Source: Yponomeuta sedellus
Lineage: Eukaryota; Arthropoda; Insecta; Lepidoptera; Yponomeutidae
NCBI GenBank assembly: GCA_934045075.1
Contig: OW203729.1
Location: 11,352,704-11,416,703 of the forward strand
DNA length: 64,000 nt
Reading direction: 5' to 3'
The notes under the pieces were generated by a model. The model did not search any database and was not told where the DNA came from. It saw nothing but the letters and a program-made list of their open reading frames with translations. The stretch's first letter is position 1. Each line of letters starts with the position of its first letter. Positions 12,139 to 60,660 of the stretch are shown in pieces. The position numbers and the translations under genes are program-made.

Positions 12139-12144
12139 CCTATG
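12139..12144. repeat. Left 6-bp target-site duplication of the Polinton
   Basis: CCTATG immediately precedes the left terminal inverted repeat and is repeated exactly after the right one. Six-base duplications are made by Polinton integrases. The site lies 93 bp upstream of the start codon of the THAP gene on the minus strand. Confidence 0.95.
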
Positions 12145-12421
12145 AGTAGTAGGAGAACCACAGTTCTGGCGCACTGACCTCCCGCTCTCCCAAGGGTCCC
12201 CCCTTTGGTTCAGAAAGTCGCGAAAGTTTGGGAAGCGGGTCCAAAAAAAAAAAAAGAAAGTTTGGTGTCTAATCCCACTAAATCGGGTGCGCTGAATCGA
12301 TTGCACTCACTCCCAGATCTCTTGGATAAGCGGTTTCGGAGATAGAAATATCGTGCCATGGTGATTAAGATAATGGTATAATCACCTCATTAATAAAGCG
12401 ATGTTTTCGTTTGGGCGTTAT

Positions 12422-12473
12422 GATCGAGCAGGTCATTAGGGCTCAGGGATCGAGCAGGTCATTAGGGCTCAGG
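12422..12473 (+). repeat. Two 26-bp direct repeats near the left tip
   Basis: Two head-to-tail 26-bp units, each beginning GATCGAGCAGGTCATTAGGG, at 12422..12447 and 12448..12473, outside the protease gene. The right arm has the pair too (about 25611..25662) with one changed base. Position near the termini fits a protein-binding or replication role, but this is inference. Confidence 0.85.
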
Positions 12474-12543
12474 TGACTTGTTAGTCACCACAATGACTAC
12501 ACATTTTGTTTCTTATAACTCTTTCTTCATTTATTTTTATACA

Positions 12544-12984
12544 TCACATAAAGCATAAATTAAACCAATCTTTCAGCATTACATCATTTCGAACGGTATT
12601 CTCAGTGAAAATATTTATAAAATTATCTAAACTCCTTCCACTATACTTATGGGCTAAGTACATCACGCAGTATTCTCCACAAACTGATGTTAACTCATTC
12701 TGCAAAATTGCGTTGTTATATCGCCATTGTTTACTATTTCTCAGTATAAACCTATGATAGGCTCCTGATGGCTTGCGACCGTATGAATCGAAGTATTCTC
12801 CAGTTCGATTTGCATCAATATGAATAGCCACCCAGTGAGATCCGGGCTGTGTGTCTGGATCAAAATTTCCTATCAAATACATTGGTACCTCTACTACCAC
12901 AGGAATGCGGTTGGCGGCATACACATTATACCTCATCAGCGGATTTATTTTATATAAACAATCTTGTATGTCTATGGTATCCAT
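12544..12984 (-). CDS. PRO: Adenain-type cysteine protease, left TIR copy
   Basis: Predicted 146-residue virion maturation protease of the adenovirus C5 type, which processes capsid and core precursors during assembly. The catalytic layout is visible: His50 in GSHWVAIHID, Asp66 in EYFDSYG, Gln95 in LQNE, and Cys102 in SVCGEYC. The Gln-to-Cys spacing of 7 equals that of adenovirus adenain. The start is the ATG at 12984. An in-frame TTG nine bases upstream lengthens the frame but is unlikely to be used. It reads outward towards the left tip and shares its upstream region with the divergent 155-residue gene. The protein is identical to the right-end copy. The ~150-residue length is shorter than adenovirus adenain (about 204) but in the range for Polintons. 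Confidence 0.93.
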   Translation of the reverse strand: MDTIDIQDCLYKINPLMRYNVYAANRIPVVVEVPMYLIGNFDPDTQPGSHWVAIHIDANRTGEYFDSYGRKPSGAYHRFILRNSKQWRYNNAILQNELTSVCGEYCVMYLAHKYSGRSLDNFINIFTENTVRNDVMLKDWFNLCFM

Positions 12985-13421
12985 GGTCAACAAATTGTTA
13001 TACGTGTAACTGATTCAAAGATCTTTTGTATTGTGTAAATCCTGGAAGTGATTCACTTATTTTTGTGGTCCGTATTTCTCTGACCTACCTATACCATTAC
13101 TTTTGATACTTACTGACGTCATTGGATGCTTTGCAACAATCTCATTAGTTATAGTGCACCGCTTCCGATGATGGAAAGTTTAAAACATTAGATGTTTGCG
13201 TAAATGCAATTAGCAATCAACTATCTGGTTTCCAAATGTTATCAATAATCATCTTGTTTCGTTCAACATCATTACTGACTAGGTTTAAACAAGATTAATA
13301 ACGAGCAAAACTGACTATATAACGGCTTCCACGGGTCTGAGTACGATACAGTTTCTATAACCAACACGGTGAAGTCTTAAGTGAATCAGCGCAATTATCT
13401 CTGCACTCTATCCAACACACC
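12985..13421. promoter_or_regulatory. Divergent promoter region, left TIR
   Basis: 437 bp between the minus-strand protease and the plus-strand 155-residue gene. On plus, TATATAA at 13316..13322 is followed by an ACAGT initiator near 13348 and the ATG at 13422. On minus, a TCAGT initiator lies about 35-40 bases before the protease ATG, with no clear TATA box. The same region is repeated at 24663..25099. Confidence 0.6.
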
Positions 13422-13980
13422 ATGGAGGTAAGTCACAAATTTTGTTTTTTATATGTACTCTCTCAATAGCAAGGCAATAATTTATGTAGATATAATAATT
13501 ATTCATTGTTCTTTACAGAATTTTTCATCTGATCTCATCGTCGATGAAGAAAATACATTTAAGAATTACTACTATCCAACTCTTTCTGATGAGGAGGAGG
13601 ACTCAAGACAAAATCGTAAGAGAAGTAACAGTGCAGACAGAAGCTTTGATAAGTTATTTGAGGTGCCAGCAAAAAAACATAAAAGCAAGAGTTCATCAAC
13701 AGTCGGTCGGGCGAATAGTGAAGGCGGCGTGTCTTACATATCAACAAACGTAGATGACGGTCGAGAAGCGACTCATCTGATAAAAATTGAAATATACGAC
13801 GTGAGAAAACTCGTCAAAATTCCACCCTCTCAGCACTGGAAACATGCCAATGTGCGAGTGAAATACTACTGCAAAGGTGTAAATAATAAACACCTAGGTA
13901 AAACCAAAGAGGTGGTTCATACAATCACCAAAGAAATCAGCACAACTCAAGACTGCCGGAACTATTCCTATAGTAACTAA
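13422..13980 (+). CDS. Spliced 155-residue TIR protein, left copy (unknown function)
   Basis: The gene has a six-base first coding exon, ATGGAG (13422..13427), followed by GTAAGT, a 91-nt intron (13428..13518) ending TTCTTTACAG, and exon 2 (13519..13980). Frame is kept. The product has an acidic N-terminus (residues 8-34), two basic clusters (RKR at 35-37, KKHKSK at 54-59) suggesting nuclear import, a Ser-rich linker, and a conserved-looking C-terminal part (about 85-145). I do not recognise a family. A TATATAA box at 13316..13322 and an ACAGT initiator about 31 bases later precede it, and AATAAA follows at about 14073. It may be an early regulator, a terminal-protein-like factor or a host-interaction protein; none of these is shown. 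The N-terminal extension through the intron is an artefact. Confidence 0.8.
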
Positions 13981-14151
13981 GGGATTTTTACTTAGTTATT
14001 ACTTAATGACCTATTCTTATTATTGAAAACAAATTGTAAAATATTCCTTTACTTAACACGAATAATTAAATTAATAAAACTGCACTTGCTTTTTTTCTTT
14101 TTCTTTTAATGCTCTAATAAGTTTACAATAAAAACTTTACATTTGACTTAA

Positions 14152-15471
14152 TTAACTACTGAAGTCTACAGTAACATTACGATTCTTATCAATTTCTATA
14201 ATATTATCAAACTCTGCATAAACAATACAATTAATAGTTTGTCGTAGATCATTGTCAAACCTTACTTCCAACCTTACACTGCCATGTCTTACAAGATTCC
14301 AATGAGCAGTAGAATTAGCAGATAAGTCAGGAGTCAAATCAAATGCCATCAAACAGTAACCATTTTGATATTGTTCCTGAGATATATCATTACCCTCATT
14401 CAGGAAATGAATTCCTGTCCCGGAAAACAACGTATGGTATGCAGCAGTATGTACTCCACCATTGAATGAAGGTTGCAAAGCTTTAGATGGTATTTGCTGA
14501 CCGTCAATATAAAGGCTAAATGAATTAATACCATGGTTATCAAAGTCGTATGGATTTCTTACTAAACTACCGTTAAATGCTGCGTTATTTACAAACCCAA
14601 TAATACATCTTTTAGGTACTTGCCCTAAAAATATATTATCTAATGTTTTCCCCTGAACTCCAGCCGGTATAGTTAAAACTTTTACTTCAGCACGTGTTAT
14701 TGGATACTTAGCAGTGGTCGTTGCTAATACCTTTTGATGAGCGAGTAATACAGTTGGATTGATTCGAGCTCTACGTATTATAAGTGTAGCATCGGTTATG
14801 CAAACTTTGTATTTAGCATCTGCTACAGCAGCCATGAGATTAAAGCTCTCCCTTGAACGAACTAATTTTACACACATTTCAACACCATTAATTAAAAACT
14901 TTTCTTGATTGAATATGTCTCCGTGAAGATGTCCAATCATTTCTATCTCTTTACTCTGACGAGAAGCTGTCTGTCTCTTAACGAAACCGGAATTATTATT
15001 ATCAGTTGCATTCATGTGGCCCGCAGTATCTTTGTACCAAAGCCCACAAGTAAGATGGGATTCTTTAGCCGCGGGAGCATAATTCAGTAAAGTTTCTATA
15101 AATGCTCGGTAGGCATATGTATTGTTGGGTGGTGACACTAGTTTCTGATTTAAGTGCACATCCAACTGGCTGAATAGAGAATGTAACCAATTATTAACCG
15201 GAGCTACGGCGGTGTCAGCAGCTAAGTTGGTAGAGTCTTGATTTAATATTTTTGCCTTAATATGAAGTAAAGTGTGTGACAAGTCAATGTAATCATCGCC
15301 GGTGCCAGGAACTTGAAACTCAATCGGACCATCATCGGTTAGCGAAGAAATGGGCTTATAATGAATCCATAGTCCACTTTCAATACTTGTTTGTGTAGAT
15401 GATGGTGATGTAGCAAATAAATCTAATTCTGACTTAACACATTCACAAGAATTATTATGTAAGAATGACAT
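14152..15471 (-). CDS. MCP: Major capsid protein, double jelly-roll type
   Basis: 439-residue hexon-like capsid subunit of the Polinton/adintovirus family, expected to trimerise into pseudohexameric capsomers. The N-terminal part has the family-like run ESGLWIHYKP...PIEFQVPG (residues 31-56) and DYIDL (60-64), which I recognise from Polinton capsid proteins. The length fits the usual 400-600. The start is the ATG at 15471, two bases after the TGA of the core-protein gene. The longer reading from a TTG at 15477 is not needed. It is the last gene of the minus-strand cluster and is tail-to-tail with the left 155-residue gene. On minus, ATTAAA at about 14105..14110 may serve for polyadenylation. 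It is intact with no stop or frameshift. Confidence 0.92.
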   Translation of the reverse strand: MSFLHNNSCECVKSELDLFATSPSSTQTSIESGLWIHYKPISSLTDDGPIEFQVPGTGDDYIDLSHTLLHIKAKILNQDSTNLAADTAVAPVNNWLHSLFSQLDVHLNQKLVSPPNNTYAYRAFIETLLNYAPAAKESHLTCGLWYKDTAGHMNATDNNNSGFVKRQTASRQSKEIEMIGHLHGDIFNQEKFLINGVEMCVKLVRSRESFNLMAAVADAKYKVCITDATLIIRRARINPTVLLAHQKVLATTTAKYPITRAEVKVLTIPAGVQGKTLDNIFLGQVPKRCIIGFVNNAAFNGSLVRNPYDFDNHGINSFSLYIDGQQIPSKALQPSFNGGVHTAAYHTLFSGTGIHFLNEGNDISQEQYQNGYCLMAFDLTPDLSANSTAHWNLVRHGSVRLEVRFDNDLRQTINCIVYAEFDNIIEIDKNRNVTVDFSS

Positions 15472-15473
15472 TT

Positions 15474-15935
15474 TCAACTTGAAAATATATCTTTGATATT
15501 TTTGTTATTTAGTGCTCTTGAATTTTTTTTAACAGCCTTCACTTTCGACTGCAGTGATTGAATGAGTGCTGCTCGTTGTTTTCTTTTAGTTATATACCCA
15601 GAACCAGACATGAGTTTGTCAATCTTATCATCAGCTTTTCTTTTTAAGTTTGTATTGACCTCTTTAAGACGTTCTTTGATAGATTCATCCATAGGACGAC
15701 TGTTGACCATATCTGACAAGAGTCCTACTCCTGCATTTAACGCTTCTTTACCAATAACCTTTGCTCCACTAGATAATAAAGGGAAAACACATCTAAATAA
15801 GCCTCCCAAGAAACTTCCAATGCCGTGGCCACGTTGATAAGGAGATCCTTTGAAAACTACACCAATACCGGACCCCGCCTGATGTGTATAATAGTGTTCA
15901 TAGGGACAAGTTATATTATCAAGCTTGGAATACAT
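15474..15935 (-). CDS. Core/membrane-active minor virion protein (pX/pVI-like)
   Basis: 153 residues. A glycine-rich amphipathic stretch lies at 36-76 (GHGIGSFLGGLFR... to LLSDM), followed by a lysine/arginine-rich tail. This resembles the small core or membrane-lytic proteins of adintoviruses and adenoviruses, and assignment beyond that is inference. Residues 109-113 read MSGSG, matching the adenain consensus (I/L/M)-X-G-X|G, so cleavage after Ser112 by the element's own protease is plausible. The ATG at 15935 overlaps the penton stop in TAATG, and the TGA lies two bases before the MCP ATG, implying coupled expression. Confidence 0.75.
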   Translation of the reverse strand: MYSKLDNITCPYEHYYTHQAGSGIGVVFKGSPYQRGHGIGSFLGGLFRCVFPLLSSGAKVIGKEALNAGVGLLSDMVNSRPMDESIKERLKEVNTNLKRKADDKIDKLMSGSGYITKRKQRAALIQSLQSKVKAVKKNSRALNNKNIKDIFSS

Positions 15936-16699
15936 TATATTTTTCTAAAGTGTAGTTTAACGCTCACAGTCCCAAATTGGAATGGTATCTTTTCTCCTGT
16001 GCTTGATCTTATATCTATTTCAATTGTATCAAATTCACGTCTCATAACAGGTAAGAAATGAGGTGGTGAGAATATATGCATTTTGTTTGATCCGTAGATA
16101 TACTTTGATGGATCCAATGGAATTATTCTTAACAAAGGTGCCATGACGTCTCCCACTATCTGAGGTTCAATAATGTCACAGTAGACAAATAACTGCGATG
16201 GTAGTCCTAAAAATATATTTGCAGGACACCTTCGGTAGTTTTTATCGACAAGATTAGTATTTGGTTCAAATCCCATTTGAAAACTTAATTTAGGTGACAA
16301 GGTTAATGATGTGATTGAGTCATCATTGATTGTTGCCATTACAAGTTTGGAGATGTCATCAAATCGGAATGTAATATTTTCTCGCAAATTATTCAAAGCT
16401 GTTATAATATTGTTGATATTTTCATAATTGGTTGCCGGTATATGTTTTTTATACATAACTGATGATGACTTTGATTCATTAGGCATAATTATACGTTTGG
16501 TTATGTAAACAATGTTTTCATGTTTTTGTACGTTAAACATTGTACAAGGGTATTGAAACTCGACGATCCCCACTGCCCATTCACCTTCTAATTTCAGAGG
16601 TTTTGGTAATTTAGTTGAAAAGTTCGTTGTCCTGTTATCGGGAAAATACTCCACGGAGCTGTTACTCAGCAATGTTAAATAAAAACTTTCTTTAGTCAT
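15935..16699 (-). CDS. Penton-like minor capsid protein
   Basis: 254 residues, starting MTKESFYLTL. The opening ESFYLTLLSNSS...PDN and the following LEGEWAVGIVEFQYP are familiar from Polinton minor capsid (penton, single jelly-roll) proteins, which fill the capsid vertices. The ATG at 16699 overlaps the integrase TGA as ATGA. This fits the family N-terminus better than an upstream TTG-initiated extension of ten residues. The stop overlaps the next ATG as TAATG. No lesions. Confidence 0.88.
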   Translation of the reverse strand: MTKESFYLTLLSNSSVEYFPDNRTTNFSTKLPKPLKLEGEWAVGIVEFQYPCTMFNVQKHENIVYITKRIIMPNESKSSSVMYKKHIPATNYENINNIITALNNLRENITFRFDDISKLVMATINDDSITSLTLSPKLSFQMGFEPNTNLVDKNYRRCPANIFLGLPSQLFVYCDIIEPQIVGDVMAPLLRIIPLDPSKYIYGSNKMHIFSPPHFLPVMRREFDTIEIDIRSSTGEKIPFQFGTVSVKLHFRKI

Positions 16700-17793
16700 A
16701 TTTTTTGTAAATTGGCTGCAGATATCCAACTGTTAAACTTATCTGGATAACCTTTCCACTTGACTAACGCTTCCTTTCTGCCACTAATGTAACGATAACA
16801 AATTATTTTATCTATTTTGTATGACGTAGTGGGGTCATAAGAGACTTTCTGTAATTCTTTTTCATAAAATGTCCCAACTATGGGTTCGTTTTGTAAATCT
16901 TTTAAAGTATAAACCACCCAAGGAGATCTCTCTATTATCGAGGATATGATGAAAACTTCATCACTCCAGTTACTTTCGTATCCTTTTTGAAAAATATGTT
17001 TGTACTTTGTTATCCTCACATGGTCACCTATATGGTAACTTGGTGGTTTCATAAAATTTGATTCATTAGATATACGAGACTTCCCAGTGTCATATAAATT
17101 GGTCCAGACTGTCATAATGTTGTTCGTGTTTACGTCACAAGGTCGCATCTTTATACTTGAATGAACTGTATGGTTATATGCAAATATTAAATCAGGTAAT
17201 ATAGTTACATATCTATAAGTGTTTTTATGAGTGAAATAACGCCACATTCTCATTTTAAGAGTTCTCTGAAATCTTTCTACTATGCTAGCTTTAATGTCGG
17301 GATTGTTTGTGGTATAGTAATTGATACCGCACTCTTTGAAGTACTGACGTACATGTTTGGAAATAAATTCTGTACCTTTGTCGGACTGGATGTGTCTCGG
17401 CGTTGCATTAGCTTCTGTAAATATACTCTCAAAACAATCTCGAACAGTCTCAGAGTTTTTATTCTTCATTGACCTAGCGAAAGCATATTTACTGAAAACA
17501 TCGATTACACAAAGAATATACTTGAAACCATCGTTATGTTCTGAGTAAGTTCGCATGTCACTTAAATCTGCCTGCCAAAGTTCATTATAATTGGATAGTA
17601 TGTATTTATTGCGAGAAAACTTTTTATTGACAGGTCTATGTAAAGTATATGTTTCTTGAGCCTGTAACCATTTTTTAACATCGTCTTTTGACATTTGACC
17701 ATGCATGGCTTTTGTTAACTTATCTAAACTACTATAGCCGGCGGGGTGTTTAACATCATAATAAATATCATTTATTGCTAATAGGGGCTCCAT
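16696..17793 (-). CDS. INT: Retroviral-type integrase with C-terminal chromodomain
   Basis: 365-residue rve-superfamily integrase that would join the element ends to host DNA and make the 6-bp duplication. Catalytic acidic residues are Asp76 (WQADLSDM), Asp138 (IQSDKGTEF) and Glu173 (SIVERFQR), the D,D-35-E type. A chromodomain-like tail occupies about 323-365 (EALVKWKGYP...NSWI), which could steer insertion to marked chromatin. The start is the ATG at 17793, overlapping the 275-residue gene by 16 bases. An upstream TTG reading is rejected. The stop TGA overlaps the penton ATG. Intact. Confidence 0.95.
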   Translation of the reverse strand: MEPLLAINDIYYDVKHPAGYSSLDKLTKAMHGQMSKDDVKKWLQAQETYTLHRPVNKKFSRNKYILSNYNELWQADLSDMRTYSEHNDGFKYILCVIDVFSKYAFARSMKNKNSETVRDCFESIFTEANATPRHIQSDKGTEFISKHVRQYFKECGINYYTTNNPDIKASIVERFQRTLKMRMWRYFTHKNTYRYVTILPDLIFAYNHTVHSSIKMRPCDVNTNNIMTVWTNLYDTGKSRISNESNFMKPPSYHIGDHVRITKYKHIFQKGYESNWSDEVFIISSIIERSPWVVYTLKDLQNEPIVGTFYEKELQKVSYDPTTSYKIDKIICYRYISGRKEALVKWKGYPDKFNSWISAANLQKI

Positions 17794-18605
17794 TTTTCCC
17801 AATCTATTTTGTTTCTAAGCTTGTATGAAGCAATGGATGCAGTTGGTGTTACCGCAGAATCTATTTCGCTCGCACTCGTAGACAGTGCATCTTGAAAGTC
17901 TTCAGCTTGTCGTGATTTTTCTCTTTTATTTTGAATTTTATCGGCGTATAGTTGATTAATGTATTCAATCCACTTCTTGTTTCCAATGTAAGTCAACGGT
18001 ACTCTTATATCTTTTAATGCATTGGCAAAGGGTTTCCATCCAATAGGGCTATTGCTTCGTCTGAGTGATCTTAAGGCGTCATTTACCAAGTCAACAATGT
18101 TACTACCTGGAATTTTTTGCTTGTCAATAATAAGTGTACCTTCATCGTCCCAAGAAATTTTATCTTTACTTGCCAAAATTGATTCCAATAGTAACTCACC
18201 TTTCTTTGTGTAAGATTTTGGTATTAATTGGAGAACATGTTTTGCAGTATACGAGGGTTTAAATGAAATAGCATGCTCAACCGGAATCTGTTGTGCCACT
18301 GCATTCTTATCATCTAATTCCTTTTTTATATATGAACCAGTCATGTCGTTTGCAACATTAACATCGCTTAGAGTTTCGGTTATAATCGGTAACATTAACG
18401 GTTTCCGTTCTTCTTCCGCGAAGTGTAAGTATCTTTGCAGTGTTTGTAAATATAATGACCACTTTGCACGATCATCTGTTTTACTGTTCAATATTTTTTG
18501 CATTTCAACATCTAAGCGAGATAATGGGGTATTGGTATTTGTTTCTTGTTTGATTCTATCTAAAAGACCAGGTTCAACAAGCAACATCTTCTTGGCGCTT
18601 TCCAT
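17778..18605 (-). CDS. Polinton-associated protein of unknown function (275 residues)
   Basis: Hydrophilic, mostly helical-looking protein with no signal or membrane segment and no motif I recognise. It has a charged N-terminal half, a region KISWDDEGTLIIDKQKIPGS at about 150-169 that reads like a small beta unit (WDDEGTLIID), and a lysine-rich stretch near 225-240. Similar unknown proteins often sit beside the capsid and integrase genes in Polintons, so a virion or assembly role is likely but unproven. The ATG at 18605 follows the previous stop by five bases, and the end overlaps the integrase start by 16. Confidence 0.75.
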   Translation of the reverse strand: MESAKKMLLVEPGLLDRIKQETNTNTPLSRLDVEMQKILNSKTDDRAKWSLYLQTLQRYLHFAEEERKPLMLPIITETLSDVNVANDMTGSYIKKELDDKNAVAQQIPVEHAISFKPSYTAKHVLQLIPKSYTKKGELLLESILASKDKISWDDEGTLIIDKQKIPGSNIVDLVNDALRSLRRSNSPIGWKPFANALKDIRVPLTYIGNKKWIEYINQLYADKIQNKREKSRQAEDFQDALSTSASEIDSAVTPTASIASYKLRNKIDWEKWSPY

Positions 18606-18610
18606 TTCGG

Positions 18611-18940
18611 TTAACTTTTTAATAACGAACTTACTAGCCCACTTAAAACTGATCCCAATATTATGGGTAAAAATGCACCTCCTTTTTGTATAATAATTTT
18701 TTTTCTAGTTGCGTGTTTTCCTTTACGTAATAGTTTTCGGAGAACGTTTTTGTATTTACCGAGTTTAGATTTTTCTTTTGGTTGTAAAGGAACTTTACCA
18801 CGAAGAACGTTATGTATACATTCACAAATGCAATTTATTTCTTCTTCTTGACAGGCCTTTAATAAAACTCTACGATATTTTGGTTTAAGAGTATGTAAAG
18901 CTCTTAACAACTCTTGATGTGTCTTGACACTATGATGCAT
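18611..18940 (-). CDS. Small basic protein with hydrophobic C-terminus (pX-like)
   Basis: 109 residues. The N-terminal helix region contains KYRRVLLKAC and a Cys pair (CICEC, 37-41), the middle is very basic (about 55-81), and a hydrophobic tail at 88-107 (GAFLPIILGSVLSGLVSSLL) looks like a membrane-active or membrane-inserting helix. I recall similar short proteins next to the ATPase in adintoviruses; they may be DNA-condensing core proteins. The ATG at 18940 shares one base with the ATPase stop (TAATG). Confidence 0.75.
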   Translation of the reverse strand: MHHSVKTHQELLRALHTLKPKYRRVLLKACQEEEINCICECIHNVLRGKVPLQPKEKSKLGKYKNVLRKLLRKGKHATRKKIIIQKGGAFLPIILGSVLSGLVSSLLKS

Positions 18941-19599
18941 TATTCATGAATGATTGAAATTTGCTGATGCCTTACGTATTTGAATTCTTTTTTAGGTACA
19001 TATACTATGCAGTTGCCATCAAACGGAAATACATTAGTCTTAAAACGACAAATATCGTTTGTATTTTGTTTCAGATCTATCATTAAATAACCATGAGCAT
19101 CTTTGGTTGCATCTTTGTATGCATCTTCGATGAACTTTAAATTCTCTGGAGAAACTTGTCTGGCTAAGTATCGAACTTGTGTTTTATCACGAGGATTTTT
19201 GAAATAAATAATGTAGCTTGAATTCAAAGATATATCTCTTTGACCTTTACCTTGATGAAATAAATTTTGTGATATGTAGAATACACTTAAATTTCTATGA
19301 TGGCTTCCTTTAGTAAATAGATCAACGATGCGTCCATCTGATTCTCTCATTAAGTCATCAATAATTATAAGATACGGTTCTTTTCCATCAAACATACCCA
19401 TGTCAGGTAGTCCTCGATGATAGATGACGTTACTTAAATTATACAAAGGTTGCATTTCATCATAGCACCACATTATTTGGGAAAACTCCTTGTTACACAT
19501 ATCTTTTATATTTTGAAGGAAATTCGTAACGAAGTTAGATTTACCACAACCACTTGGCCCCGCCACTATGGCAGTAAAAGGATGATTAAAATGAATCAT
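18940..19599 (-). CDS. ATP: FtsK/HerA-type genome-packaging ATPase
   Basis: 219-residue P-loop ATPase predicted to pump the genome into the capsid. Walker A is GPSGCGKS (14-21) and Walker B is YLIIIDD (76-82) with acidic Asp81/Asp82. A sensor-like FYISQN at 107-112 follows, the A32/FtsK-HerA pattern found in Polintons, adintoviruses and virophages. Length is typical (about 200-260). It lies 186 bp downstream of PolB. The AT-rich gap may hold PolB polyadenylation signals and a weak TATA-like AATATATTG for the late genes. The ATG at 19599 is unambiguous. Intact. Confidence 0.93.
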   Translation of the reverse strand: MIHFNHPFTAIVAGPSGCGKSNFVTNFLQNIKDMCNKEFSQIMWCYDEMQPLYNLSNVIYHRGLPDMGMFDGKEPYLIIIDDLMRESDGRIVDLFTKGSHHRNLSVFYISQNLFHQGKGQRDISLNSSYIIYFKNPRDKTQVRYLARQVSPENLKFIEDAYKDATKDAHGYLMIDLKQNTNDICRFKTNVFPFDGNCIVYVPKKEFKYVRHQQISIIHE

Positions 19600-19785
19600 T
19601 ATGGGTTATACGTGTGAGTCGTAAGAAAGAAATCAAAGAAGTGAGGTGAGCTTAGTAAAACAATATATTTATTTATCCAACATCAAACTTGGCATAATAT
19701 ACACACTTAATAATAAATTTATACAAATTAGTTTATCTTATAAATATACAACATTACAAACTAATACTTAAAACCTATATGCTAA
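19600..19785 (-). promoter_or_regulatory. Gap between polymerase and ATPase genes
   Basis: AT-rich, 186 bp, no gene. On minus it contains AATAAA (about 19670) and TATA-like runs (AATATATTG). It may end the early PolB transcript and start the late one. This is position-based inference. Confidence 0.35.
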
Positions 19786-22700
19786 CTATACTATCTTGTA
19801 ATGACCCCAAGGTAGTGTGTCAACACGATTTGGTAGAATATGTCGTTTAGTATCATTCGATGATAAACATGTTTTATTAATTTTTTGGGTGAATATTACA
19901 TGTTTTATTGACCTAAACCTGTACATTTCACAAATCTTAACATCATTATCAAACAAACAGGACTTATAGTTATTAATAGTCATAGATTTCGTAACACATT
20001 TATTAACACCTTTGGCTTTCGCTGCGATTTTATTTTCAATATCAATTGCATACATTTTCGATCTCAATCCAACAAATTCCCGAAATATTTTGCCATTATT
20101 TTCATCCTTGAAGAAACCTAACTTTTTTCTATTTATTTGAGGGTATCCAAATACATTGTCGCTCGGATAATCCGATGTATCAAAATATTCATTTAAATCG
20201 GGTTTGATGTCGGCATACAAATCATTTGTGAATATTTGATAAATCAGACTGTCTGTATCCGTATACAATAATTTTATTTTGTTAACAAACTTTTGCATCA
20301 TATAAGTATAATGAAAATTATACATCAAAGTTTTTGATATATCCAAAATGCAAAAACCTAAATATATTGGTTTATTATAAACTAGCTTAATCTTGTTCAT
20401 CTGAACGGCTACAAGCGAGTCCGAAAATATGGAAAGACTATGGAACTCAGGTCGAGCAATCAAAGTCTCTGCACCCAGGACTTTACCTTCATTTTCCCAG
20501 TGAGTTAATAATTTTACATTTACCCGTTTTTCAATGTTTTCCATGGTCTTTCCAAAAACTGAATTATTCATTAACTTATAAAAGTCTTTTTCAAAACCTG
20601 ATTGGGATAATGATCTCAAATGTGTATTCAAATCAATGTATTTCTTCAACCATGCACTTTGGTTAAACTGTAGTATTCTATGTACTTTGAGTAATTTCAA
20701 ACCCATTTCCAAACACTGTTTCAAGTTTCTGTAATGAATTACGTATTTGGTTTTACTACACAAATTTGATATTAACTTTACCTCTCTACTAACTCCAAAG
20801 CAAAGGTTTTCAGGACAAAGCGGTAAATCAGAATGTTGGTCATGAAGCTCTTTGGGATATTCTAAGTCCACTTCTAATATGTAACCAACATCAGAGGTAT
20901 CTGATGTATTAAAATCAACATTCGCATCCACCCATTTAAACCCTCCAGTCGGTAACATCTGTGACATGGCCCAACCATACAAATTGTTAGCATCAAAGTA
21001 AGCTAAAAATGAGCTTGGTAAATCCTTATCATAATCATCCATAAATTTGTTGTTTGCTTTAGCATGCCGATTACTGCATTGAGATACACCACCCCTTATA
21101 CCAGACTTAACGAACGCAATTTTCTCAAAGTCCGTTAATAGTTCTAGTTCGATCTTTGTATATTTCAACATCGCATCCCAGCTCAATCCTGGAGCAGTAT
21201 AATAATGAGCGGGATCTAAATCATAAGTTTTCAAACATAACTCGCGAAAGTTTTCAAAAACATCAGTCAAAAGTAGTACATCTGTTTTTAAATATAGGTT
21301 CGAGTAATCTGACATGTTGTGACATTCGAAGTGTTGCCACACATCTTGAGCGTGAGAGTAGTCATCAACCGAGACGTTGCAATTTGTAAGGGAGCTATAA
21401 AATTTTTCTTTGTTGGGAAGAGAAGTCAACTTCAAAGTTTCGAACGATGTCATATATTCATAAGGATAAACCCCTTTTCTTTTTAATCGCGAGAAATCAT
21501 CCGGAGACGGGAAGGATTTTTTTAGATCAACAAATTGTTCATCTTTGAGATTTCTTGCTAATTTATCTAGACTACACGATAGGAACTTGAAAGAATCAAC
21601 GAACCGTAAGCTTACAGTTTGATTGTTAATGTGCAAGAGTTTTGAAAAGGAAATATATTTTTCCTTGTTTTGAGGTATAATTTGAATTTCACCTTGTACT
21701 AAATTTAGAGCATGAACAATGAAGTGAGCATCATAGTTACTGAGGTTATGTAAAAATACAGGAATGTAGCGTGGCGCATGAAATTTATCGATGCATATCT
21801 GATGTCCAACACCTCTAAAGTCACCAGTGTACCAATCGTAATCAATCACTTTATTTTGATCTAGTGCCCTCTCACATATGAAACAGGTGGAGGTTTGTGA
21901 TACAATGCTCCGAGTCTCAATAGATAATGGATTGGGGCACTTTTGAAAACTGTTTCTACTACATATTTGTTTAATGTCAGTCAATAATCTTTCCATAAAT
22001 ATCTGTGCACAATTGGGACCGCTATATGTTTCATATTTGGATAGGCTATTATCATACGAACATTTGATGTAGTAACCAAAGCTATACACTTCATGTTTTT
22101 GAACATTTGTTGTATGTGACTTAGATGGATCGTTGGAACATGAATCAATTGGATTTAAAAACGCCTCAAAATCACCGTAGACTACAAACGGGACTTTCAT
22201 TTTATTTTGATAATTATCAAAACTTAATAAATTGTTTGGTGTCAGCTCACCAAACCAATTTTTACGTTTACTTTCCGGACTAGGTAAATCAGTCCGAATA
22301 TGTCTGCAATCTGTCGTTTGATGAGTTTCTAATATATCACGAGATGAAAAGTATATCAAACAACCATCGCAGATATGAATTGCACCATCTGATTTTTTTA
22401 CTTGTTTACTTACTAATCGAGACAAGTTTTTAATGTAGCAATAGTGACTGTTCGTGCCATTAGTAATTAATAGCAAATTAACATGAGTTGATTTACGGGA
22501 TTTTGTGAAATGAAGTGGACCTACAACTGTGTGTGTCTTTGAACGTTCATTGTATTCTAAGCCAAATACGTTGATGCTAATATTGTTAAGGGTTTCTATT
22601 TTGCTGATATCTTTCAGTTTTATTGGAAGTGATACATTGCCAAATTTTATTTTGTTGCTGTGTCTGCTGTATGATGTCACCCTATCTGAACTTTTTTGTA

Positions 22701-23905
22701 CTGGAAAAAGGGCTGAAAGCAACGCCCACTTGAAACATTGGTTATCATTATTTTGCACATTGATAATTGCTTTTTTAAGCAAAATATCCCTGGGTAATGG
22801 GATGTATGATGATCCTCGTAGGGGTGTGTATTTATTAACATTCATTTCCATATGTTTAATTTCCTTGAGGGACCAACCACTGTCTTTCTTTTCAAAGTTA
22901 CTAACTTTTTCAACAATTACATCTCGTAAATTAGATATAAAAATGTCTAGATCATCAGATTCACTTAAGATGAAGTTACATGTTTGAAAATCAAATGTGT
23001 TTTTGATGTCTTTTGTCTCTTGTACAAAATCAGCATGCAAAATGAAATTGACTTTGAAGTTTCTAAGTTCTTTGGTACATTCACTAATCAAAGTTGAAAC
23101 AGTGTCTTTAATGGAATTTAAAAATGCTTCTGGAGTTTCAAACTCTCCTTTTGTCTTATCACAATGTGATAAAATTTTGTAAGTTAGTATCCTATGTCTG
23201 AATGCACTTTCAACGAGTGTGACATTGGATAACGCATGATTTGATTTGAGAACATTATTTTTGTGAAGATTACTTTTGTAGTGATTAGTAAGGTACCTTT
23301 TGGTCACAAAAACCTGACAAGTGGTGCACTCCACTTTCAAACTGTCAGCTCCATCACGATTGTTGCTCACGTTTACAGTTGCAGATGTAGAGGGCTCTGG
23401 AGATTGTCTTGACTTCTTGTCATGGCTGCTCAGTTCCGCAGCATTTTTTCTTTTTTGTCCTCGACCAACTTGAGGTGTATCACTAAAACAAAGATAAAAC
23501 GCGTTGAAATTTGTGTATGTTATCATTTCGAGTTGTTGAGGAAAGTCAAGGAAACTTAGAGGCTGTTGAGGGAAGAGGCATGCCTTGAGGGAGACCTTTG
23601 ACCAGCAGTTGACGATTACATGCTGATTGGTTGAGGAAAATTTATAAATAAACGGTTACTTACTTGAGACTTTTCTCCACAGAGACACACAGGTCATATA
23701 GAGCTAGATCTTCCACATCAATATTGTCTTCAACTGCCGCGCAAAGATCTGCCATTTCTTTATCAAACGAGTCACTGATGGAGCTATTTTCTAGCATCAC
23801 ACACGCAGCAGACATTTCTTCATCAAATGATGAATCACACAGAGCACTTTGAACATTATTAGACACAAAAAATGCACTAACACAAACTTTATCGTGACCG
23901 TTCAT
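19786..23905 (-). CDS. POLB: Protein-primed family B DNA polymerase, spliced
   Basis: Join exon 1 (23664..23905) to exon 2 (19786..23482); 1,312 residues. It replicates the element from its termini by protein priming. In the spliced numbering: C2H2 finger (Cys133, Cys136, His148, His154), a DNQCFKW segment at 327-333 typical of Polinton polymerase N-termini, a CxxC...H/C cluster near 450-475, Exo I VYGDFEAF (Asp518, Glu520), Exo II LSNYDAHF, Exo III YLKTDVLLLTD, motif A YFDANNLYGW (Asp911), motif B KLMNNSVFGK (about 1050-1059) and motif C YTDTDS (Asp1156, Asp1158). All are intact. Unspliced, the long frame would start inside the intron, without the acidic N-terminus. Confidence 0.92.
23483..23663 (-). 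other. Intron in the polymerase gene (181 nt)
   Basis: The donor reads CTCAA|GTAAGT and the acceptor TTTGTTTTAG|TGATAC. Exon 1 leaves two bases (AA) and exon 2 supplies T, so phase is exact and the joined coding length (3,939 nt) is divisible by three. Without splicing, exon 1 stops at the TAA inside GTAAGT. Confidence 0.85.
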
Positions 23906-23973
23906 AGTTAACGATAGTGTACCTCAGAACAGTGATACTCTTGAACTATTACAATATCTGTAGCTTCATTCGG

Positions 23974-23981
23974 CTTTTATA
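23974..23981 (-). promoter_or_regulatory. TATA box for the polymerase gene
   Basis: TATAAAAG on the minus strand lies about 69 bases before the PolB ATG at 23905, a suitable distance for an RNA polymerase II start near 23950. It lies outside the terminal repeat, so PolB has a single-copy promoter. Confidence 0.55.
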
Positions 23982-24103
23982 ATTCTAGCCTAATGGAATT
24001 CAACGAGTTAACTAATCACTTAGATACGATCCACATTAGTACACTTACAATTTGTTTTCAATAATAAGAATAGGTCATTAAGTAATAACTAAGTAAAAAT
24101 CCC

Positions 24104-24662
24104 TTAGTTACTATAGGAATAGTTCCGGCAGTCTTGAGTTGTGCTGATTTCTTTGGTGATTGTATGAACCACCTCTTTGGTTTTACCTAGGTGTTTATTA
24201 TTTACACCTTTGCAGTAGTATTTCACTCGCACATTGGCATGTTTCCAGTGCTGAGAGGGTGGAATTTTGACGAGTTTTCTCACGTCGTATATTTCAATTT
24301 TTATCAGATGAGTCGCTTCTCGACCGTCATCTACGTTTGTTGATATGTAAGACACGCCGCCTTCACTATTCGCCCGACCGACTGTTGATGAACTCTTGCT
24401 TTTATGTTTTTTTGCTGGCACCTCAAATAACTTATCAAAGCTTCTGTCTGCACTGTTACTTCTCTTACGATTTTGTCTTGAGTCCTCCTCCTCATTAGAA
24501 AGAGTTGGATAGTTGTAATTCTTAAATGTATTTTCTTCATCGACGATGAGATCAGATGAAAAATTCTGTAAAGAACAATGAATAATTATTATATCTACAT
24601 AAATTATTGCCTTGCTATTGAGAGAGTACATATAAAAAACAAAATTTGTGACTTACCTCCAT
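24104..24662 (-). CDS. Spliced 155-residue TIR protein, right copy (unknown function)
   Basis: Mirror copy of the left gene. Exon 1 is 24657..24662, the intron 24566..24656 and exon 2 24104..24565, with the same GTAAGT and TTTACAG signals. Two residues differ from the left copy (Tyr to Asn in the NYYYP segment, Asp to Asn in LSDEEE). It lies upstream of and in the same direction as PolB, 198 bp away, so it could be co-regulated with replication. TATATAA (minus strand, 24762..24768) precedes it. Retention of two intact spliced copies argues that the frame is under selection. Function not assigned. Confidence 0.8.
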
Positions 24663-25099
24663 GGTGTGTTGGATAGAGTGCAGAGATAATTGCGCTGATT
24701 CACTTAAGACTTCACCGTGTTGGTGATAGAAACTGTATCGTACTCAGACCCGTGGAAGCCGTTATATAGTCAGTTTTGCTCGTTATTAATCTTGTTTAAA
24801 CCTAGTCAGTAATGATGTTGAACGAAACAAGATGATTATTGATAACATTTGGAAACCAGATAGTTGATTGCTAATTGCATTTACGCAAACATCTAATGTT
24901 TTAAACTTTCCATCATCGGAAGCGGTGCACTATAACTAATGAGATTGTTGCAAAGCATCCAATGACGTCAGTAAGTATCAAAAGTAATGGTATAGGTAGG
25001 TCAGAGAAATACGGACCACAAAAATAAGTGAATCACTTCCAGGATTTACACAATACAAAAGATCTTTGAATCAGTTACACGTATAACAATTTGTTGACC
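24663..25099. promoter_or_regulatory. Divergent promoter region, right TIR
   Basis: Inverted copy of the left divergent promoter, with the same TATA box (minus, 24762..24768) for the 155-residue gene and the same initiator for the plus-strand protease. Because it is duplicated, both genes have two promoters each in the element. Confidence 0.6.
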
Positions 25100-25540
25100 A
25101 TGGATACCATAGACATACAAGATTGTTTATATAAAATAAATCCGCTGATGAGGTATAATGTGTATGCCGCCAACCGCATTCCTGTGGTAGTAGAGGTACC
25201 AATGTATTTGATAGGAAATTTTGATCCAGACACACAGCCCGGATCTCACTGGGTGGCTATTCATATTGATGCAAATCGAACTGGAGAATACTTCGATTCA
25301 TACGGTCGCAAGCCATCAGGAGCCTATCATAGGTTTATACTGAGAAATAGTAAACAATGGCGATATAACAACGCAATTTTGCAGAATGAGTTAACATCAG
25401 TTTGTGGAGAATACTGCGTGATGTACTTAGCCCATAAGTATAGTGGAAGGAGTTTAGATAATTTTATAAATATTTTCACTGAGAATACCGTTCGAAATGA
25501 TGTAATGCTGAAAGATTGGTTTAATTTATGCTTTATGTGA
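25100..25540 (+). CDS. PRO: Adenain-type cysteine protease, right TIR copy
   Basis: Second, protein-identical copy of the 146-residue protease, reading outward to the right tip. His50, Asp66, Gln95 and Cys102 are all present, so both copies look catalytically competent. The start ATG lies in the context GACCATGG. Because it sits in the inverted repeat, the element is diploid for the gene, and gene conversion between arms can keep the copies alike. Upstream, AATCAGTTAC holds an arthropod-style TCAGT initiator that could place a transcription start about 35-40 bases before the ATG (inference). Confidence 0.93.
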   Translation: MDTIDIQDCLYKINPLMRYNVYAANRIPVVVEVPMYLIGNFDPDTQPGSHWVAIHIDANRTGEYFDSYGRKPSGAYHRFILRNSKQWRYNNAILQNELTSVCGEYCVMYLAHKYSGRSLDNFINIFTENTVRNDVMLKDWFNLCFM

Positions 25541-25754
25541 TGTATAAAAATAAATGAAGAAAGAGTTATAAGAAACAAAATGTGTAGTCATTGTGGTGAC
25601 TAACAAGTCACCTGAGCCCTAATGACCTGCTCGATCCCTGAGCCCTAATGACCCGCTCGATCATAACGCCCAAACGAAAACATCGCTTTGTTAATGAGGT
25701 GATTATACCATTATCTTAATCACCATGGCACGATATTTCTATCTCCGAAACCGT

Positions 25755-25771
25755 ATGAGTCCTAGACTCAT
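25755..25771. repeat. 17-bp palindrome found only in the right TIR
   Basis: ATGAGTCCTAGACTCAT forms 7-bp arms around CTA and lies in a net 19-bp insertion relative to the left arm. It is one of two length differences between the terminal repeats. It may be a footprint of replication or repair. Confidence 0.85.
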
Positions 25772-25961
25772 CATTATCCTAGAGCTCTGGGAGTGAGTGC
25801 AATCGATTCAGCGCACCCGATTTAGTGGGATTAGACACCAAACTTTCTTTTTTTTTTTTTTTTGGACCCGCTTCCCAAACTTGCGCGACTTTCTGAACCA
25901 AAGGGGGGACCCTTGGGAGGGCGGGAGGTCAGTGCGCCAGAACTGTGGTTCTCCTACTACT

Positions 25962-25967
25962 CCTATG
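25962..25967. repeat. Right 6-bp target-site duplication of the Polinton
   Basis: CCTATG directly follows the final ...CCTACTACT of the right terminal repeat and is identical to the left copy. The perfect match means no visible decay since insertion. Confidence 0.95.
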
Positions 25968-35238: not shown

Positions 35239-35594
35239 ATTGTCCTTACCACGGGTTAGTGCATTAAAAATAATATAATCATGTGGGTACAGCGATATCA
35301 TTCCGATGTAAAAAAACCTAACTGCAAAATAGGTACTCGGGGCTGCAAGTGATGCAAAATTACTTCGGCCAGATGTCGCTGCCTGTACGAAATACAGAGA
35401 AATTATTATAAAGGAGGTTTGAAATTTCACTGATGCCGGTGAGTCGCCCATTAGCTCAGTTGGAAAGAGCGCTGGCACGGATAGCCAGAGGTCGCGGGTT
35501 CGAATCCCGGCATGGCTGGAATTTTTAGCCTCTAAATAGGTTTTTAAAATTGTCCTTAGCACGGGTTAGTGCATTAAAAATAATAAAATCATAA
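35239..35594 (+). repeat. Family D tRNA-like repeat, copy 1
   Basis: Unit of about 310 bp with a tRNA-like domain at 35446..35517: A-box TTAGCTCAGTTGG, B-box GGGTTCGAATCCC. The same tail word precedes and follows it, so the copy sits in a head-to-tail arrangement. Confidence 0.8.
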
Positions 35595-50177: not shown

Positions 50178-50305
50178 CCCATGCTAAGGACAAATTTAAA
50201 AACCTATTTAGAGGCTAAAAATTTCACCCATGCCGGGATTCGAACCCGCAACCTCTGGCTATCCGTGCCAGCGCTCTACCAATTGAGCCAATGGGCGACT
50301 CACAA
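50178..50305 (-). repeat. Family D tRNA-like repeat, copy 2 (truncated)
   Basis: Tail word, tRNA-like domain with intact B-box (on minus GGGTTCGAATCCC), then truncation within ..GAGTCGCCC. Confidence 0.8.
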
Positions 50306-56845: not shown

Positions 56846-57290
56846 TTTTCTTTTTAATGCACTAACCCGTGCTAAGGACAATTTTAAAAACCTATTTAGA
56901 GGCTAAAAATTCCACCCATGCCGGGATTCGAACCCGCAACCTCTGGCTATCCGTGCCAGCGCTCTTCCAATTGAGCTAATGGGCGACTCACCGGCATCAG
57001 TGAAATCTCGAACCTCTTTACACTATTCTCAGATCTGTATTACGTACAGGCAGCGACATCTAGCTTAAGTAAATTGCATCACTTTCAGCCCCGACTACCT
57101 ACTTTGCAGTTAGGTTTTTACATCGGAATGATATCACTGTACCCACATGACTATACTATTTTTATTTTTAATGCACTAACCCGTGCTAAGGACAATTTTA
57201 AAAACCTATTTAGAGGCTAAAAATTCCACCCATGCCGGGATTCGAACCCGCAACCTCTGGCTATCCGTGCCAGCGCTCTTCCAATTGAGC
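56846..57290 (-). repeat. Family D tandem pair
   Basis: Two head-to-tail units (56846..57150 and 57151..57290) with identical junction word ACTATACTATTTTTATTTTTAATG-type DNA, each with a tRNA-like domain (about 56921..56987 and 57232..57290). The period is about 310 bp. Confidence 0.85.
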
Positions 57291-59649: not shown

Positions 59650-60039
59650 AAAAACCTATTTGGAGGCTAAAAATTTCACCCATGCCGGGATTCGAACCCG
59701 CAACCTCTGGCTATCCGTGCCAGCGCTCTACCAATTGAGCCAATGGGCGACTCACCGGCATCAGTGAAATTTCGAACCTCTTTACACTATTCTCTGTATT
59801 ACGTACAGGCAGCGACATCTGGCTTAAGCAAATTGCATCAATTACAGCCCCGACTACCTACTTAATTCATTATCTAATTCATTATCGTAATACAGAGAAT
59901 AGTGTAAAGAGGTTCGAAATTTCACTGATGCCGGTGAGTCGCCCATTGGCTCAATTGGTAGAGCGCTGGCACGGATAGCCAGAGGTTGCGGGTTCGAATC
60001 CCGGCATGGGTGAAATTTTTAGCCTCTAAATAGGTTTTT
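59650..60039. repeat. Palindromic pair of family D copies (154-bp arms)
   Basis: Left arm 59650..59803 (minus orientation) and right arm 59886..60039 (plus) are complementary with one mismatch (TTTGGAGG versus TTTAGAGG) around an 82-bp spacer. Both carry the tRNA-like domain with A and B boxes. Confidence 0.95.
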
Positions 60040-60370: not shown

Positions 60371-60660
60371 CCAATTTCTGAATTGAGATTTTCGCTAAGT
60401 AAATAGTTAATGCTGGCTCTTCGAATTTCTCAGAAAAGAGCGTAACAGAATGTTACTTAAGTATTTACTTAGTGAAGTTCTCAACAACCTATTTAGAGGC
60501 TAAAAATTCCACCCATGCCGGGATTCGAACCCGCGACCTCTGGCTATCCGTACCAGCGCTCTTTCCAACTGAGCTAATGGGCGACTCACCGGCCTCAGTG
60601 AAATTTCGAACCTCTTTACACTAATCTCTGTATTACGTACGAAATTCTCAATTCTAAAAC
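60371..60660. repeat. Family E copy interrupted by a family D copy
   Basis: Family E runs from 60371 to about 60485 (..TTACTTAGTGAAGTTCTCAA), family D (minus) fills about 60486..60640, and the family E end resumes as GAAATTCTCAATTCTAAAACC. Confidence 0.7.

What the first reader, a model, noticed from the sequence alone, without database searches (positions are those of the whole stretch)
12139..25967. A complete, apparently undamaged Polinton with perfect target duplication
Ends, duplication (CCTATG both sides), all core motifs and every frame are intact, and the 1.9-kb arms differ by few bases. Most insect Polintons in assemblies are broken, so an intact copy could be recently mobile or produce virions. 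Seen: ends, duplication, motifs. Inference: recency.
Basis: partly seen in the sequence, partly recalled or inferred. Interest (0 to 1): 0.9.

Follow-up and report, generated by a model that had tools for sequence, protein, structure and literature searches.

The report
Complete virus-like transposon in insect genome
This is a complete virus-like jumping gene (a Polinton) in what is probably a butterfly or moth genome, one of about twenty closely similar copies that inserted fairly recently; it belongs to a known kind, with the twist that its long end repeats carry two of its genes.

Summary
A 13,817-bp Polinton/Maverick lies at 12145-25961 between perfect CCTATG duplications. Its 1.9-kb arms differ by 9 substitutions and 3 indel events, and its core frames are open. 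Gene order, end motif, 6-bp duplication and capsid fold fit the family.

The same 657.5-Mb assembly holds sister copies. Of 19 end pairs examined, 17 have perfect, mutually different duplications, and 18 of 18 full-length capsid-gene matches lack stops. So this is one member of a recently amplified family, not a rare survivor. The window copy is of ordinary age for the family: about 18 private substitutions in 13,307 sites. Its capsid gene carries a private in-frame insertion.

Beyond the finding: the arms carry the protease and a small spliced gene, so each is present twice, also in sister copies. The two arms of a copy evolve in concert (49 of 64 alike, 13% when permuted). Virions, expression and present mobility are untested. 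Verdict: new member of a known kind.

The parts
12139..12144 (.). left 6-bp target site duplication CCTATG
25962..25967 (.). right 6-bp target site duplication CCTATG
12145..14039 (+). left terminal inverted repeat arm, begins AGTAGTAGG
24045..25961 (-). right terminal inverted repeat arm, ends CCTACTACT; has about 19 extra nt, not found (exact 17-letter test) in any of 38 sister arms fetched
12422..12473 (+). 26-bp unit repeated twice in left arm (mirror at 25611-25662 in right arm); 1 or 2 copies in sister arms
12544..12984 (-). adenovirus-type cysteine protease (PRO), 146 aa, left-arm copy
   Evidence: Pfam Peptidase_C48 just above cut-off; African swine fever virus S273R E 3.1e-4; 40.5% over 116 aa to L001
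25100..25540 (+). second PRO copy in right arm, same protein
13422..13980 (+). small spliced gene, 155 aa (exons 13422-13427 and 13519-13980), left-arm copy; 7 protein relatives
24104..24662 (-). second copy of the 155-aa gene in right arm, two residues different, co-directional with polymerase
14152..15471 (-). major capsid protein, 439 aa, double jelly-roll
15474..15935 (-). 153-aa protein between penton and capsid genes (PW position)
   Evidence: 44% over 87 aa to the same position in L001
15935..16699 (-). minor capsid (penton) protein by position, 254 aa
   Evidence: C-terminal 42% over 84 aa to L001
16696..17793 (-). retroviral-type integrase with C-terminal chromodomain, 365 aa
   Evidence: Pfam rve 6.8e-15, Chromo 8.7e-10
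17778..18605 (-). 275-aa protein (PZ position)
   Evidence: open frame, position only
18611..18940 (-). 109-aa protein (PM position)
   Evidence: open frame, position only
18940..19599 (-). packaging ATPase, 219 aa, with Walker A and B motifs as read by eye
   Evidence: Pfam RNA_helicase 2.9e-4 and Pox_A32 0.032, weak
19786..23482 (-). protein-primed DNA polymerase B, exon 2
23664..23905 (-). DNA polymerase B, exon 1
   Evidence: GT..AG junction; resembles the N-terminus of annotated Bicyclus protein P0123 (by eye)

Best explanation
A complete Polinton/Maverick (polintovirus) of the insect type, one of about twenty related copies in this genome. Shown: boundaries, 6-bp duplication, gene set, open frames, sister copies with their own duplications, gene-bearing arms and concerted arm evolution. 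Inferred from family knowledge: the integrase cuts with a 6-bp stagger and inserts a linear copy; polymerase B replicates that copy by protein priming from the ends; capsid, penton, ATPase and protease would package it. Inferred here: during replication one arm templates or recombines with the other, which keeps the 1.9-kb arms alike. The protease, and perhaps the small gene, are probably left-end genes copied to the right end. After insertion the copy only accumulates host mutations.
For: Ends, duplication, arms. Genes. Seventeen of 19 examined end pairs, window included, have perfect, different 6-bp duplications. Genome-wide capsid search: 26 of 26 candidates scored, 18 full-length (window included), all without stops. 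In 9 of 15 sister near-full copies all nine core pieces are open. Window arm differences are singletons among 32 arms. Arms alike within copies in 49 of 64 comparisons, permuted mean 13%. Variants shared by two or more copies are 12 nonsynonymous to 10 synonymous against an expected ratio of 3.2 (p 0.023). Left-end origin of PRO: in L001 PRO directly follows the capsid gene on the same strand. Weaker, for the small gene: polyadenylation-type signals just outside the left arm (such motifs occur 25 and 34 times on the two strands).
Against: No expression, extrachromosomal or particle data. Six of 15 sister near-full copies have a broken core gene, and two of the nine open ones carry in-frame deletions in the capsid gene; three of the nine have one arm copy of PRO or of the small gene interrupted. 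The window capsid gene has a private in-frame insertion whose effect is unknown. Window arms carry more private changes than its core would predict (10 in 3,770 against 8 in 9,537 sites, p 0.016; one of the 10 lies beside an indel and may be an alignment effect, since the pairwise alignment shows 9), so arm divergence is not a clean clock. L001 is a distant relative. Private changes of sister copies are also poorer in nonsynonymous changes than neutral (96:47, p 0.014), and shared and private changes do not differ significantly (p 0.35), so the selection evidence is weak.
Confidence: 0.93

Rival explanations
1. A purely intragenomic transposon: copies move through the germ line without ever forming virions, and the capsid genes persist by hitch-hiking or too little time to decay.
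For: About twenty copies in one genome; no particle evidence; six of 15 sister near-full copies broken; shared and private changes do not differ significantly in nonsynonymous share (p 0.35).
Against: 18 of 18 full-length capsid matches have no stops, and capsid relatives keep length and conserved columns (window changes 2 of 101 invariant columns, the other 19 sequences 0-9). That is expected if capsid function is selected in the longer term.
Confidence: 0.35
2. An actively or recently infectious polintovirus whose virions spread between individuals or species, with the insertions as proviruses.
For: Complete morphogenesis module, capsid double jelly-roll model, many copies with open frames, best viral-library match by E-value a bracovirus protein at 50% identity (TM-score 0.40 only).
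Against: No particle, read-level or cross-species DNA evidence was available here; the 50% match is far too distant for recent transfer.
Confidence: 0.3
3. An assembly artefact: identical arms produced by mis-assembly of one end.
For: Arms are about 99.5% alike and the element is multi-copy.
Against: The arms differ at 9 substitutions and 3 indel events, these differences are private to this copy, the flanks carry a perfect duplication, and 16 of 19 examined copies on several contigs have arms of the same length.
Confidence: 0.02

Closest known systems
Vertebrate Mavericks, 134 intact elements (PMC8097293, passages read)
   Same: 6-bp duplication, (AGT)2//(ACT)2 ends, size range 12.7-24.6 kb, gene order polymerase-ATPase-PM-PZ and integrase-minor capsid-PW-major capsid-protease
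   Different: Arms 1.9 kb here against 46-1,447 bp there; arms carry genes; polymerase split by a predicted intron, theirs intronless; all core genes on one strand, as reported there for Xenopus tropicalis
Group II insect Mavericks, 12 intact elements (PMC10328495, passages read)
   Same: Insect host, polymerase relatives from insects
   Different: Their arm structure and copy numbers were not seen by me
Adintoviridae, renamed Eupolintoviridae (PMC12451622, passages), and Drosophila-associated adintoviruses (PMC8363768, passages)
   Same: Polymerase B, integrase, capsid, protease and ATPase (FtsK); 13-15 kb
   Different: Those Drosophila sequences are contigs from pooled flies; here a dated, multi-copy chromosomal family
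Lepidopteran Polinton genes in public annotation (Parnassius mnemosyne, Melitaea, Plutella, Bicyclus)
   Same: Capsid 71-84% identical; one Parnassius mnemosyne capsid cluster holds 164 members
   Different: Only proteins seen; arms and duplications not available

Membership tests
Polinton/Maverick | terminal inverted repeats with AGT-type ends | tested here: met
Polinton/Maverick | 6-bp target site duplication | tested here: met
   window and 16 of 18 sister end pairs; in the other two the exact terminal motif was not found at the left end
Polinton/Maverick | protein-primed DNA polymerase B | tested here: met
   7949 of 7984 scored candidates are homologous, a capped list, some named DNA-directed DNA polymerase; the window protein itself has no Pfam polymerase match, 1 of 22 aligned members has DNA_pol_B_2; catalytic motifs read by eye
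Polinton/Maverick | retroviral-type integrase | tested here: met
   Pfam rve and Chromo above cut-off
Polinton/Maverick | double jelly-roll major capsid protein | tested here: met
Polinton/Maverick | adenovirus-type protease | tested here: met
Polinton/Maverick | packaging ATPase | tested here: inconclusive
   weak Pfam hits only; Walker motifs by eye, position as in the family
Polinton/Maverick | penton (single jelly-roll) protein | tested here: inconclusive
   position and partial match to L001; fold not modelled
Eupolintoviridae (virus family) | virions | not testable with these tools
   no particle data
Group II (insect) Mavericks | no VSR-like insertion in the polymerase | tested here: inconclusive
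   no VSR family among the Pfam matches, but the insertion was not aligned directly

The most novel reading that the evidence does not exclude
A currently multiplying polintovirus lineage in which the virion protease and a lineage-specific, probably nuclear, regulator have been taken into the inverted repeats. Both arms are rewritten from each other in every replication cycle, giving two kept-alike copies of these genes and placing the regulator directly upstream of the polymerase.
Probability: 0.3. Interest if true: 0.6.

Novelty: new member of a known kind. Interest (0 to 1): 0.38.

Why it matters
Whether Polintons still form virions in animals is open: PMC4642659 (2015; passages) says the actual virions remain to be identified. 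A single insect genome with about twenty young copies, many with open frames and most with a clear insertion site, is a good natural setting for observation. The gene-bearing, concertedly evolving arms give direct sequence evidence about how the ends are copied between insertions.

Tried and rejected
1. Two ages for outer and inner arm. From the window alone the outer 186 bp looked older than the inner 1.7 kb (4 of 186 against 5 of 1,709, p 0.008), suggesting a recent arm extension. Rejected: in the 32-arm alignment every difference is private to one window arm. Still unexplained: 7 of 10 window arm singletons lie in the outer 330 bp (others 12 of 41); one of the 7 may be an alignment effect beside the indel.

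2. Arm divergence as the only clock. Rejected because core and arms disagree for this copy.

3. Related elements in other collections. Integrase and capsid queries on viral contigs gave none. The polymerase alignment gave one distant contig, with integrase but no capsid match and no long arms in the stretch held (L002). The GTDB scan gave one 3.6-kb fragment (L001). Phage records gave no match.

4. The fold of the small arm gene was not predicted with confidence (pLDDT 47). A weak zf-IS66 match below cut-off was not used.

5. Empty site: joined 600-bp flanks found no second copy within the window. The genome-wide flank search did not complete, nor were the polymerase (118, 125, 128), integrase (101) and protease (120) genome searches.

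6. Pfam and PDB sequence or profile searches did not recognise the window's capsid or polymerase; the capsid was recognised by fold.
Full report
What was checked. The element runs from 12145 to 25961 (13,817 bp). It starts AGTAGTAGG and ends CCTACTACT, and CCTATG stands on both sides. The arms are 1,895 bp (left) and 1,917 bp (right), with 9 substitutions and 3 indel events between them. Arm similarity stops abruptly at the inner edge: 23 of 100 bases are alike just inside it. The longest core frame is 1,246 aa; the longest frame in 100 shuffles of the core was 145 aa.

Corrections to the annotation. The polymerase gene has an upstream exon (23664-23905), a 181-base intron with GT and AG borders, and a main exon (19786-23482). 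The upstream exon resembles the start of the annotated Bicyclus anynana protein P0123 (by eye). The small arm gene starts at 13422, has a 91-base intron, and makes 155 residues. It has 7 homologues among 22 candidates; one of the 7 carries an organism name, the moth Tuta absoluta. TATA-type motifs lie 76 to 124 bases upstream of the starts of polymerase, small gene and ATPase. Such motifs occur 16 times per strand in the element, so this is only suggestive.

Sister copies. The window lies at G000:C9:11352704-11416703 of a 657.5-Mb assembly. A 662-bp end query gave 42 matches, with 40 of 68 candidates scored, so counts are lower bounds. I examined 19 pairs of ends including the window; two further single ends were fetched but not paired. 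Seventeen of the 19 have perfect 6-bp duplications, all different; in the other two the left end did not contain the exact terminal motif. Sixteen of 19 have arms with 1,860-1,905 aligned columns; the other three give 555, 568 and 964 and are shortened or truncated copies. The capsid search scored 26 of 26 candidates: 18 are full-length, including the window, and all 18 lack stops; one more is interrupted; the rest are fragments or a decayed older relative (88% identical, 7 stops). For 15 sister near-full copies I compared nine core pieces each: 9 of 15 have all nine open (two of these with in-frame deletions), and 6 of 15 have at least one frameshift or stop. Three of those nine have one arm copy of PRO or of the small gene interrupted. 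Of the 38 sister arms fetched, 32 keep PRO open at 146 or 148 residues and 31 keep the small gene open. Gene-bearing arms are thus a property of the family.

Age. In an alignment of 32 arms from 16 copies, every difference between the window's arms is a state found in only one arm. These changes therefore arose in this copy, most simply after insertion. The window carries 10 private substitutions in its two arms (9 in the pairwise alignment, the extra one beside an indel) and 8 in 9,537 core sites, where other copies average 10.4. Together about 18 in 13,307 sites, or 0.135%; other copies average about 0.099%. With 2.9e-9 per site per generation (recalled for Heliconius, from no call) this is about 0.47 million generations, with a wide margin. 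The window copy is thus recent on an evolutionary scale but ordinary, not youngest, in its family; one sister copy with full arms has no substitution between them. The window's capsid gene has a private in-frame insertion.

Arms copy each other. At 32 arm columns with variants seen in at least two arms, a copy carrying a non-majority state has both arms alike in 49 of 64 cases; with right arms permuted among copies the mean is 13% and the maximum 27%. So arms are homogenised between insertions, which fits replication or recombination through paired ends. Which of these acts is not shown. That PRO is a left-end gene copied to the right end is inferred: in L001 PRO directly follows the capsid gene on the same strand. 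For the small gene the case is weaker: polyadenylation-type signals lie just outside the left arm, but such motifs are common in the element.

Selection. Variants shared by two or more copies are 12 nonsynonymous to 10 synonymous, against an expected 3.2 to 1 (p 0.023). Private changes are 1 to 5 in the window and 96 to 47 in the others (p 0.0036 and 0.014). This points to some constraint, but shared and private changes do not differ significantly (p 0.35), so it does not show when the constraint acted.

What is known. Intact Mavericks with 6-bp duplications and (AGT)2 ends are described in vertebrates, with arms of 46-1,447 bp in 134 elements and 96% of loci degraded (PMC8097293, passages). 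Twelve intact insect Mavericks are in print (PMC10328495, passages). Adintoviridae is now Eupolintoviridae (PMC12451622, passages). My ten literature searches listed, by title and start of abstract, no paper on gene-bearing Polinton arms in Lepidoptera. I saw passages of nine papers and the whole text of none; most subscription papers are not in that library, so this is not a claim of priority.

Verdict. It is a new member of a known kind, with a notable arm structure. Recency is supported, rarity of intact copies is not, and virion production remains untested.

Noticed in passing
window 35444-35520, 50223-50298, 56911-56986, 59675-59750, 59939-60014, 60508-60584: Six tRNA-Ser(GGA)-like genes in about 25 kb (Rfam tRNA matches), probably tRNA-derived SINE copies, with similar-looking frame fragments near 36.5, 43.1 and 62.6 kb (by eye).
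   Followed up: no
window 12145-12475 and 25630-25961: Seven of ten window-private arm substitutions, and the extra ~19 nt of the right arm, lie in the outer 330 bp or so; other copies show only a mild excess there (12 of 41).
   Followed up: partly
G000:C11:16825538-16826620: An older, decayed relative (capsid 88% identical, 7 stops) suggests an earlier wave of the same lineage.
   Followed up: no
L001 1-3607: A contig filed under a tubeworm endosymbiont MAG carries animal-type Polinton genes (penton end, capsid in two frames, protease, polymerase), probably host contamination in the bin.
   Followed up: no
window 14152-15471 (minus): The best viral-library structure match of the capsid by E-value is a Cotesia sesamiae bracovirus protein, 50% identical but TM-score 0.40; such wasps parasitise caterpillars (recalled).
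   Followed up: no
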